NCBI RefSeq assembly: GCF_900112045.1
Contig: NZ_FOJW01000020.1
Location: 1-38,755, forward strand
Source: Lentibacillus halodurans
GTDB lineage: Bacteria; Bacillota; Bacilli; Bacillales; Amphibacillaceae
Direction: 5' to 3'
Length of the DNA: 38,755 bases
The notes beneath the pieces were generated by a model. It saw only the letters and a list, made by a program, of their open reading frames with translations. It ran no database searches and was not told the DNA's origin. Position 1 is the first letter of the stretch, and each line of letters begins with the position of its first letter. Of this stretch, positions 1 through 2,117 are shown in pieces. The position numbers and the translations under genes are program-made.

Positions 1-76
1 CATAGATTTCCCCTTTGTTATCAATAATTGCTACTTGATGTTTATGTTTAGCTACATCAATCCCCACATAAATCAT
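1..76 (-). CDS. IS110-family transposase, N-terminal fragment cut by the window edge
   Basis: Reading minus from 76 gives an ATG and 25 codons beginning MIYVGIDVAKHKHQVAIID. This is the characteristic start of IS110-family (DEDD, RuvC-like) transposases, where the Asp of GIDVAK is the first catalytic acidic residue. A strong ribosome site, AAGGAAGGA, lies six bases before the ATG. The rest of the protein, including the C-terminal serine-containing Tnp20 domain, lies beyond base 1, so intactness cannot be judged. IS110 elements lack classical inverted repeats, and those of the IS110 subgroup carry their guide RNA upstream of the transposase. That is where the candidate RNA at 110-290 sits. Confidence 0.85.
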   Translation of the reverse strand, partial: MIYVGIDVAKHKHQVAIIDNKGEIY

Positions 77-109
77 TAGAATTCCTTCCTTCGACTTTAT
101 TACGCTGTG

Positions 110-290
110 CTTCAAGCCACGCACTCCTTGTCCTGTATCCTTGTACGAAATCAAACGTCTTGCGTTATCTAACTGATTAACAGATAAACAAAGAGCTGTG
201 GTTAGATTCTCTAAAAACCAGTTACTAAAAAGTACTGTAGGCTGGGTTACTAATCCACAGCGTTGCTTTTAGTATAAACTAAAAAAGCAC
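110..290 (-). ncRNA. candidate IS110 bridge RNA (target- and donor-binding loops)
   Basis: This is the non-coding left end between the element boundary near 323 and the transposase ATG. Read on minus it folds into three consecutive hairpins. The first is a 5' stem (278-288 with 265-273, arms ACTAAAA/GCTTTTAGT). The second is a long loop closed by 250-260 with 196-205 (CTGTGGATTAG/CTAACCACAG). The third is a loop closed by 161-165 with 119-123 (ACGCA/TGCGT). The second loop contains CCCAGCCT (246 to 239) on its 5' side, matching the flanking repeat. The third contains TACAAGG (145 to 139), complementary to the core plus the left end. Size (about 180 nt), order and orientation fit known IS110 bridge RNAs. 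Exact ends are not determined. Confidence 0.55.
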
Positions 291-323
291 CAGAGGTAGC
301 GAACCTCTAGTACTTAATATACA

Positions 324-408
324 AGGTTGGGACATACCTAAAGTAAGGAGCTTTGAAGGCGACCAATAGTCAGATTTTTGTTTTATAAACGTTCTTTTGT
401 CCCAGCCT
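324..408. repeat. inverted-repeat-bounded intergenic repeat (GGCTGGGACA type), apparent IS110 target
   Basis: An 85-bp stretch is bounded by AGGTTGGGACA (324-334) and TGTCCCAGCCT (398-408), which are inverted copies with one mismatch. Such GGCTGGGACA arms look like the dispersed intergenic repeats of Bacillaceae, but I can see only this copy here. The inner sequence shows no coding potential. The IS110 left end starts immediately outside the left arm. Confidence 0.55.
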
Positions 409-599
409 CGTTCTCTTTCATTACTTACACTTATCCCCCGGATTGTATAGCGCTCAGCTTAAGTTTTACTGAAAACAATAGCCACATCCGCTTTTGGTAC
501 AAATTCTAAACACTTGCTGAAACGCCTGTTGGAAACAACTGACCTGAACAATACACCTCACTTTATCTGCGTATCAATCTATCATTTTGTGAAATTTGA

Positions 600-628
600 T
601 TGAATTTTTTCGGTAAATAATATATAAT
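600..628 (+). promoter_or_regulatory. SigA promoter of cstA
   Basis: TTGAAT (600-605) and TATAAT (623-628) are separated by 17 bp, giving an almost ideal SigA promoter. Transcription should start near 635, about 43 bases before the cstA ATG. Confidence 0.75.
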
Positions 629-632
629 CCTT

Positions 633-648
633 TTGTTAGCGTTTTCAA
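633..648 (+). promoter_or_regulatory. cre operator (CcpA) over the cstA start site
   Basis: TTGTTAGCGTTTTCAA fits the cre consensus WTGNAARCGNWWWCAW with one mismatch. It lies just 3' of the -10, over the expected transcription start, a position typical of CcpA repression. CcpA itself is encoded at 13909-14904. Confidence 0.65.
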
Positions 649-677
649 CGGTAGGAGTCACACAGGGGGAGAAAAAC

Positions 678-2117
678 ATGATATCTTTTTTCATAAGCAT
701 CGGATTATTGATTGTCGCATATTTTACGTACGGGAAACTTGTTGAAAAAAACTTCGGAATAGATCATTCACGTAAAACACCTGCCATTGCCAACCAAGAT
801 GGCGTTGATTTTGTTCCAATGAAAAAACAAAAGAATGCCATGATTCAATTGCTTAATATTGCAGGAACAGGCCCGATATATGGCCCAATTATGGGGGCCT
901 TATTTGGTCCGGCAGCGTTTATTTGGATTGTACTTGGTTCTATTTTTGCCGGGGCCGTTCACGATTATTTGACCGGTATGATATCGATTCGTAACAAAGG
1001 TGCGCATATACCGGAACTTGCCGGAAAGTTTTTAGGAAAAATTCCCCGGCACCTGGTGAATGCTTTTGCACTGCTGCTGCTCCTTTTGGTCGGAACGGTG
1101 TTCGCTACTACATCCGGATCACTGCTTCATATTTTACTAGATGGCCATGTGGCATTGTGGGTAATTTTAGGTATCATTTTTCTTTATTTCCTATTATCAA
1201 CGATGCTGCCGATTGATAAGATTATCGGCCGAATCTATCCTTTCCTTGGTGCCGTCCTGTTAATCGGGACAGTTGGGATTGGCATTGCGATGTTCACGTC
1301 AGGAAATGGTTCAGCCATCCCTGAATTGACACTGGAAAACATGCATCCGGAAAACTTACCCATATTCCCGATCCTATTTTTAACGATTACGTGTGGTGCT
1401 CTGTCCGGGTTTCATGCGACACAGTCACCTCTTATTTCCCGTACAGTACAAAAAGAGTCACAAGGCCGCTATGTTTTCTATGGGATGATGATTGCGGAAG
1501 GGATTATAGCCATGATATGGGCTGCCGCGTCCATGAGCCTTTTCCACGGGGAAGAATTAAATGCCCTCATCAATGCCGGTACAGCCTCTGCTGTTGTGAA
1601 TGAGGCATCCACAGTGCTTCTGGGCGCTATCGGCGGAACCATTGCCGTATTGGGGGTTATTGTGCTTCCGATCACGTCGGGCGACACAGCTTTCCGTGCC
1701 GCACGTTCCGTCATTGCGGATTATATGAATTTGAATCAGCAGAAAGTAGCGAATCGTTTAGTCATTGCGGTGCCTTTATTTGTCGTGTCCATCATTTTAA
1801 CGCAAATCGACTTTGACATTTTATGGCGGTATTTTTCCTGGGCAAACCAGTCAACAGCAGCACTCGCCCTATGGATTGCTACCATGTACCTGCTATTGAA
1901 AGGGAAAAATTATTGGATGTCGCTCATTCCGGCATTGTTCATTACCGACATGGTGTTTATCTATATATTGAATGCGCCGATCGGTCTTAATCTACCACTC
2001 CAGATATCGCATATTGGTGGAATTATCCTTACAATTGCTTTTGCTATGTGGTTCTTCCGAAAAGCGAAACAGAATAAATGGGATAGAATTGAAGTGGACC
2101 TTCAGAAAGCTGCATAG
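678..2117 (+). CDS. cstA: CstA family pyruvate/peptide transporter (carbon starvation protein)
   Basis: The 479-residue polytopic membrane protein belongs to the CstA family (carbon starvation induced; members import pyruvate or peptides). The N-terminal half carries the family hallmark NIAGTGPIYGPIMGALFGP followed by GSIFAGAVHDYLTGMIS. A second conserved block, TCGALSGFHATQSPLISRTV, lies near residue 255. It is shorter than E. coli CstA (about 700 residues), as in many Firmicutes. The ATG at 678 is chosen over an in-frame TTG at 633 because GGGGGAG lies at 665-671. It is monocistronic, between a SigA promoter with a cre site and a clear terminator. Exact substrate is inferred from the family only. 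Confidence 0.92.
   Translation: MISFFISIGLLIVAYFTYGKLVEKNFGIDHSRKTPAIANQDGVDFVPMKKQKNAMIQLLNIAGTGPIYGPIMGALFGPAAFIWIVLGSIFAGAVHDYLTGMISIRNKGAHIPELAGKFLGKIPRHLVNAFALLLLLLVGTVFATTSGSLLHILLDGHVALWVILGIIFLYFLLSTMLPIDKIIGRIYPFLGAVLLIGTVGIGIAMFTSGNGSAIPELTLENMHPENLPIFPILFLTITCGALSGFHATQSPLISRTVQKESQGRYVFYGMMIAEGIIAMIWAAASMSLFHGEELNALINAGTASAVVNEASTVLLGAIGGTIAVLGVIVLPITSGDTAFRAARSVIADYMNLNQQKVANRLVIAVPLFVVSIILTQIDFDILWRYFSWANQSTAALALWIATMYLLLKGKNYWMSLIPALFITDMVFIYILNAPIGLNLPLQISHIGGIILTIAFAMWFFRKAKQNKWDRIEVDLQKAA

What the first reader, a model, noticed from the sequence alone, without database searches (positions are those of the whole stretch)
110..290. IS110 left end encodes a foldable bridge RNA whose target loop matches its own insertion site
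Seen: on minus, a hairpin loop closed by 250-260/196-205 holds CCCAGCCT (246 to 239) on its 5' side. The sequence directly flanking the inferred element end is CCCAACCT (331 to 324), giving 7/8 identity with the eighth a permissible G:T wobble. The other arm of the flanking repeat (401-408) is an exact 8/8 match. Known: IS110 bridge RNAs carry a target-binding loop whose left guide reads like the left target and ends in the core dinucleotide (CT in IS621). Inference: this element is guided to the GGCTGGGACA intergenic repeat family.
Basis: partly seen in the sequence, partly recalled or inferred. Interest (0 to 1): 0.78.

Follow-up and report, generated by a model that had tools for sequence, protein, structure and literature searches.

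The report
Jumping gene with target-matching guide RNA
The window begins inside a mobile DNA element of a known RNA-guided kind whose predicted guide RNA reads the end of a short repeat beside which its copies sit; related elements carry other guides that mostly match their own insertion sites, so this is a well-supported new member of a known kind.

Summary
The window opens inside an IS110-group element (recombinase gene on minus from base 76, left end 323-77, core CT at 325-324). The left end can form a target-binding loop whose left guide, CCCAGCCT, matches the flank CCCAACCT 7/8. Alone this is modest evidence (a match as good turns up in 120 of 5000 shuffles); other copies decide it. Of 8 left-end junctions in four genomes, 6 abut CCCA(G/A)CCT; one Siminovitchia copy has CCCAGACT in loop and flank. 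Across 10 lineages, left guides fit their own flanks better than other lineages' (2944 of 3,628,800 permutations as good); right guides too (8 of 3,628,800). The target is the outer tip of an intergenic inverted-repeat element (32 exact sites here against 4 control hits). Outer stem, donor loop and junction promoter also fit the bridge-RNA model. Weaker points: right-guide pairing in the window's clade is only CT-C(T); four of 10 lineages match the left flank 4/8 or less in fixed register; no transcript was seen; and a conserved downstream helix outcompetes the guide stem if the RNA runs on towards the recombinase. I found no description of that helix in what I read.

The parts
1..76 (-). 5' end of the IS110-family recombinase gene (MIYVGIDVAKHKHQ...), cut by the contig start
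   Evidence: a relative in another genus gives the full 387-aa protein with PF01548 + PF02371 and NF033542
77..323 (-). Non-coding left end (LE), first base after the core at 323
   Evidence: the 8 left-end junctions read break at CT|TGTATATTAA
324..325 (-). Core dinucleotide CT
   Evidence: CT at both junctions of the relatives C17, AGTR, G062 and Siminovitchia a; the right junction of the window's own copy was not seen
326..334 (-). Left target, TGTCCCAAC before the core; tip of a repeat element
324..408 (.). Short copy of the inverted-repeat element whose left tip is the target; ends AGGTTGGGACA (324-334) and TGTCCCAGCCT (398-408)
285..315 (-). 5' stem-loop followed by a T-run, terminator-like
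   Evidence: 1 found; shuffle mean 0.2
250..261 (-). Target-binding loop, 5' arm of outer stem (GCTGTGG-A-TTAG)
   Evidence: 192 of 198 cells paired; both-sided changes
239..246 (-). Left target guide CCCAGCCT
209..215 (-). Right target guide TTTAGAG (predicts CT-CTAAA)
   Evidence: register 3 nt before the closing arm, as used for all lineages
195..205 (-). Target-binding loop, 3' arm (CTAACCACAGC)
188..195 (-). Donor-binding loop closing stem, 5' arm CTCTTTGT
   Evidence: by best partner; not in the RNAalifold consensus
169..174 (-). Left donor guide AGTTAG, equal to the right-end tip TAGTTAG(C/T)CT
   Evidence: concordant by eye in 10 of 11 lineages
139..146 (-). Right donor guide GTACAAGG, pairs with CCTTGTAT across core and LE start (one G-U)
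   Evidence: sequence, by eye
124..132 (-). Donor-binding loop closing stem, 3' arm (GACAAGGAG); likely 3' limit of the mature RNA by analogy with IS621
   Evidence: the limit is inferred
102..109 (-). CACAGCGT, alternative partner of ACGCTGTG (263-256), 33 nt before the recombinase start

Best explanation
The feature is the bridge-RNA gene of an IS110-group insertion sequence. When the element excises as a circle, its right and left ends join at the core CT and form a sigma-70-like promoter (inferred). The RNA made from it folds a target-binding loop and a donor-binding loop (structure supported by covariation). [quoted passage not shown] This directs the DEDD recombinase to the outer tip of an intergenic inverted-repeat element, TGTCCCA(G/A)C-CT-C. 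Guide-target agreement is shown across copies and relatives; transcription and recombination are inferred from what is published on IS621 and the IS110 family.
For: Junctions of 8 left ends, with the loops of the 7 long enough to show one. Siminovitchia loop and flank share the same changed letter. Left-guide permutation test over 10 lineages, one row each: own mean 5.3/8 vs cross 3.64, 2944 of 3,628,800 permutations as good; the six positions away from the core alone 3.4/6 vs 2.01, 8250 of 3,628,800; with a shift of up to 3 nt 6.4/8 vs 4.32, 6 of 3,628,800. Right-guide test in one register over the six non-core positions: 4.3 vs 1.93, 8 of 3,628,800; the two CA-core elements carry CA in their right guides. 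Unconstrained RNAalifold recovers the outer target stem and inner donor stem; 8 of 15 pairs have both-sided changes. Junction TTGACT-17 nt-TATATT, with no sigma-70-like site found inside window 1-420. Recombinase assigned to the IS110 RNA-guided transposases and aligned with IS621 and ISCro4. Target letters 32 times in this genome vs 4 for the reversed control.
Against: No transcript data. Left-guide matches of 4/8 or less in fixed register: Leuconostoc 4/8 (5/8 shifted), 'Bacteriophage sp.' 3/8 (4/8), L. lactis LB7 unnamed2 2/8 (6/8), L. lactis LB7 unnamed4 4/8 (7/8); right-guide matches of 4/8 or less: the window's clade (3-4/8) and L. garvieae M21102102 (3/8). The decayed Siminovitchia copy has loop CCCAAACT against flank CCCAGCCT, and the C17 copy matches 5/8. 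The excess of C after the core (23 of 26 right ends vs 18 of 28 unoccupied repeat tips) is not significant (Fisher p = 0.056), and 12 of those 26 right ends are in two genomes (G170, G173) where no left end was found at E <= 0.001. The target hairpin is absent from the minimum-energy fold of the whole left end. The left-guide register was set by hand.
Confidence: 0.92

Rival explanations
1. The recombinase itself, without an RNA guide, recognises the repeat tip; the loop match is coincidental or a leftover.
For: In the window's clade loop and target hardly vary, so the clade alone cannot separate the two; the right guide pairs poorly there.
Against: Guides track flanks in diverged relatives on both sides of the core; one Siminovitchia copy shows the same changed letter in both; the RNA structure is conserved by compensatory change.
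Confidence: 0.04
2. The copies share the flank by descent (duplication of a repeat with its element), not by targeting.
For: The repeat stretches beside the C15 and C6 copies are alike.
Against: The four left ends of this genome lie on different contigs beside different genes; the right flanks of the five right ends found here differ; the same junction occurs in genomes of other genera.
Confidence: 0.02
3. The left end mainly acts as a 5' leader of the recombinase mRNA, in which the downstream segment 109-102 pairs with the target-loop arm, so the described hairpin is not the working form. (Not exclusive of the best explanation: both forms may exist.)
For: Minimum-energy fold of the full left end; conserved alternative helix.
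Against: An RNA ending near the donor-loop closing stem, as in IS621, folds the hairpin with probability 0.998; the hairpin stem has its own compensatory changes.
Confidence: 0.1

Closest known systems
IS621 (Escherichia coli, IS110 group) and its bridge RNA
   Same: DEDD recombinase, left-end RNA with 5' stem-loop, target- and donor-binding loops, CT core, junction promoter, target in a dispersed intergenic repeat (PMC11208160 and PMC11208158, passages seen; an IS621 left end read)
   Different: Target is the tip of an inverted-repeat element, not REP. About 45 nt lie between the donor loop and the recombinase start, holding a segment complementary to the target-loop arm; in the IS621 copy read, the donor loop reaches the start codon (by eye).
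IS4321/IS5075 (IS1111 group) targeting Tn21-family terminal inverted repeats
   Same: An IS110/IS1111 element that inserts at the terminal repeat of another mobile element (title seen in the reference list shown; otherwise recalled)
   Different: IS1111 elements carry the guide in the right end and longer subterminal inverted repeats (passages); this one carries it in the left end.
ISPa11, ISPpu9, ISPpu10 (IS110 family, REP-targeting)
   Same: All copies counted lay in a repeated intergenic sequence (6/6, 7/7, 7/7 in PMC1525189, passages seen)
   Different: Different repeat, host phylum and guide.
ISEc21 / seekRNA elements
   Same: IS110-type upstream non-coding region gives an RNA matched to the target (PMC11187229, passages seen)
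   Different: Different target and element.

Membership tests
IS110 family, IS110 group | DEDD transposase with C-terminal Transposase_20 domain | tested here: met
   PF01548 2e-33, PF02371 1.3e-22, NF033542 1e-68 on the 387-aa relative; aligned with IS621 at GID, E, KTD-x2-D and the serine of Y-x-SG. That the first four are the catalytic DEDD is recalled; the serine is S241 of the passages, matched by position. The window itself holds only the first 76 bases of the gene.
IS110 family, IS110 group | Non-coding left end longer than the right end | tested here: met
   Virgibacillus copy: about 258 nt left, about 179 nt right, from coordinates; the right end is not very short
IS110 family, IS110 group | Structured RNA in the left end with target and donor loops | tested here: met
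   the donor closing stem rests alone
IS110 family, IS110 group | Target-loop guides match left and right target including the core | tested here: met
   over 10 lineages, with misses; in the window's clade the right guide matches weakly
IS110 family, IS110 group | Donor-loop guides match the element's own ends | tested here: met
   By eye, 10 of 11 lineages share AGTTAG, AGTTTG or AGAATG between left donor guide and right-end tip; L. garvieae M21102102 does not
IS110 family, IS110 group | Sigma-70-like promoter formed at the circle junction | tested here: met
   (ends taken from different contigs of this genome); activity not testable
IS110 family, IS110 group | RNA expressed and bound by the recombinase | not testable with these tools
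   no RNA or binding data
IS1111 group | Guide RNA in the right end and 7-17 bp subterminal inverted repeats | tested here: not met
   the guide lies in the left end; no such inverted repeat seen between the right-end tip and left-end start, by eye only

The most novel reading that the evidence does not exclude
In this Bacillota clade the left-end RNA carries a conserved second partner for the 5' arm of the target-binding loop, 32-41 nt before the recombinase start and just beyond the expected end of the mature guide RNA. A transcript that continues into the recombinase gene would therefore refold and lose its guide loop, so guide RNA and recombinase mRNA would be alternative forms of one transcript.
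Probability: 0.3. Interest if true: 0.5.

Novelty: new member of a known kind. Interest (0 to 1): 0.4.

Why it matters
It shows from sequence alone that a guide RNA's letters predict where an unstudied element lands, and suggests that sister elements have been re-aimed between repeat tips and ribosome-binding sites by changes in a few guide letters. It adds a Bacillota clade to an RNA-guided recombinase family of practical interest. The conserved alternative helix makes a testable question out of how these elements separate guide RNA from messenger RNA.

Tried and rejected
Rfam over window 1-1000: two sub-threshold hits (SpF01 26 bits against a gathering score of 55; snoU85 15.3 against 41), taken as chance. 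Order-wide left-end DNA search over 397 genomes gave, besides this genome, one 39-base match (G389), not followed. Order-wide protein search at E <= 1e-90 rang in 0 of 397, and since few candidates per genome are scored it shows nothing. The viral-contig scan found no relative. Relatives are rare: 5 of 159 genomes of the family, 2 of 60 in the nearest-relatives search, both counts including this genome, 3 of 398 of the class with an enterococcal query. An IS1182-type transposase as source of the repeat ends: three loci checked, none clearly bounded by them, so what moves the repeat is unknown. Only two repeat units with both exact ends were found in 33 fetched stretches (273 and 309 bp), so 'inverted-repeat element' is a description, not a test. 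In one search the donor closing stem was sought by best partner, which picks spurious partners in some rows; it is used only as support.

Rows left out: L126 (IS110 between predicted resistance genes; only its annotation table was seen); L127 and L128 (left ends looked too different to align, by eye); the Monoglobus record in the flank tests (no flank); L162-L167, found after the tests. By eye, L163 matches TCACCTCC 8/8, L162 and L167 match weakly, and no right-guide test was made for them. The window's clade is represented by the window copy and by the Virgibacillus copy. The left-guide core register was set by hand from the loop with the flanks in view and may lean towards a match; the right-guide register is one rule for all rows. 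In one search, 14 of the 18 left ends were used, and the pair table there was typed by hand for 12 of them.

A count in my notebook (C after core in 21 of 26) is wrong; the script gives 23 of 26.

Full report
What was checked. The first 76 bases, read on minus, begin an IS110-family recombinase; bases 323-77 are the non-coding left end. The coordinates and letters in the finding are correct. The loop holds the only 8-mer on the minus strand of the left end that matches the flank 7/8 or better, but 120 of 5000 shuffles hold one too, so one copy proves little.

Copies of the element. The left end recurs in this genome at C15 (100%), C17 (86%) and C6 (66 bases, contig end), and in Virgibacillus sp. 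AGTR (90%; 387-aa recombinase, about 1.6 kb). Three left ends (C13, C15, C6) and three right ends (C12, C16, C18) lie at or near contig ends, so the assembly breaks at the element; in C17 most of the first half of the recombinase gene is missing; C23 has a right end with only part of a recombinase gene near it. I never saw the window copy's own right end. The element is rare: 5 of 159 genomes of the family hold a relative at E <= 1e-60.

Targets of the close clade. Eight left-end junctions were read: C13 CCCAACCT; C15, C6, AGTR, G062 and the second Siminovitchia copy CCCAGCCT; C17 CTCAGCCT; the first Siminovitchia copy CCCAGACT. That last element (recombinase 76% identical) reads CCCAGACT in its loop too. 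The loop of the second, decayed Siminovitchia copy reads CCCAAACT against CCCAGCCT, and the C17 loop has drifted. In this genome the left flank is the outer tip of a repeat whose ends read AGG(C/T)TGGGACA...TGTCCCA(G/A)CCT. That tip occurs 32 times here against 4 for the reversed pattern (occupied tips included), and 51, 53 and 6 times in three same-genus genomes (controls 2, 4, 1). So the element inserts at the border between repeat and host DNA, where only a letter or two right of the core can be constant. After the core, C follows in 23 of 26 right ends from six genomes and in 18 of 28 unoccupied repeat tips of this genome (p = 0.056); 12 of the 26 are from genomes where no left end was found. 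The right guide predicts CT-CTAAA; at most CT-CT is met.

Relatives with other guides. tblastn against plasmids and phages gave elements at 36-48.5% identity, of which 12 have alignable left ends. Enterococcus faecalis (three): loops TCACCTCC, ATACCTCC and TTACCTCC, flanks TCACCTCC, CTACCTCC and TTGCCTCC, right side CT-TTC in each. Lactococcus garvieae R22-8: TCATTTC in loop and flank. L. formosensis: TTTA(C/T)TCC, right side 8/8. Faecalibacterium phage Roos: ATCACC, right side CTCCCGAAAA 10/10. Two elements have a CA core with CA also in the right guide. Over 10 lineages, own left guides beat permuted ones (2944 of 3,628,800; six non-core positions alone 8250; with shift allowed 6), and own right guides do so clearly (8 of 3,628,800). 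The misses are in those counts: left 4/8 or less in fixed register for Leuconostoc, 'Bacteriophage sp.', L. lactis LB7 unnamed2 and unnamed4; right 4/8 or less for the window's clade and L. garvieae M21102102. Durrant et al. 2024 showed such covariation for the family with 5,511 target-RNA pairs (PMC11208160, passages).

RNA structure. Eighteen left ends were aligned. RNAalifold without constraint gives the outer stem of the target loop and the inner stem of the donor loop; 8 of 15 pairs change on both sides in at least one row; 192 of 198 cells of the target stem pair. The bulged A of the stem recalls the flipped-out A of IS621 (PMC11208158, passages; equivalence inferred). The left donor guide equals the right-end tip in 10 of 11 lineages by eye, in three versions. 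The joined ends give TTGACT-17-TATATT.

An unexpected helix. The minimum-energy fold of the whole left end lacks the target hairpin because CACAGCGT (109-102) pairs with ACGCTGTG (263-256), which includes the hairpin's 5' arm. The hairpin is almost certain in RNAs up to left-end nt 200 and nearly lost at nt 215. Of 14 left ends tested, 12 have the partner overlapping the arm, 32-41 nt before the recombinase start as the script placed it; in Leuconostoc the helix is shifted off the arm, and in L. garvieae R22-8 there is none better than chance (1474 of 2000 shuffles as good). Own pairs beat permuted ones (17.9 vs 14.2; 772 of 3,628,800). Shuffles combine to p = 2.7e-8 over 10 lineages. In a table of 12 rows, position -1 pairs in 12 (G-C 6, G-U 3, A-U 3), -2 in 11 (C-G 9, U-A 2), -3 in 8, -4 in 5 and +4 in 7. 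In two rows (L. lactis LB7 unnamed4, 'Bacteriophage sp.') the base next to the arm is unpaired in the hairpin (A.C) but paired in the alternative helix. In the IS621 copy I read, the donor loop runs to the start codon and I see no such segment. It may be a switch between guide and messenger or, as Leuconostoc suggests, a closing helix. Passages seen in PMC11208160, PMC11208158 and PMC11187229 did not mention it and one paper search returned nothing; that is a limited search of open-licence papers.

Verdict. IS110 elements aimed at dispersed repeats are long known (PMC1525189, passages). What a specialist might follow up is the alternative helix, and the sister elements aimed at ribosome-binding sites.

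Noticed in passing
L052, L053, L059 (Enterococcus faecalis plasmids); L163 (G685): Sister elements whose guides read ACCTCC / GAAAG: the three Enterococcus copies abut an AGGAGG Shine-Dalgarno-like sequence, which stays whole beside the element; two of the three (L052, L053) have an annotated start codon just downstream. L163 has the left target TCACCTCC. The listings of two paper searches showed no such report.
   Followed up: partly
L123 (NZ_OY725734.1, 1563 bp circular): A record filed as 'plasmid 10' of Monoglobus pectinilyticus is little more than one IS110 element, possibly its excised circle; its junction holds a few extra bases before the left end.
   Followed up: partly
L058 and L125: Elements with a CA core in place of CT, with matching CA in left junction, right end and right target guide.
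   Followed up: partly
[quoted passage not shown]
   Followed up: no
L162 (G704): A relative's copy appears, by eye, to sit in the left-end region of another IS110 element.
   Followed up: no
G000 contigs C15, C30, C31 ends; C30:40111-41181: At least one further, different IS110 element also lies at contig ends in this genome.
   Followed up: no
L098, L106 (G000 C15:35192-35464, C19:247156-247464): Intergenic repeats of 273 and 309 bp with inverted ends AGGCTGGGACA and no evident target duplication; what moves them is unknown.
   Followed up: partly
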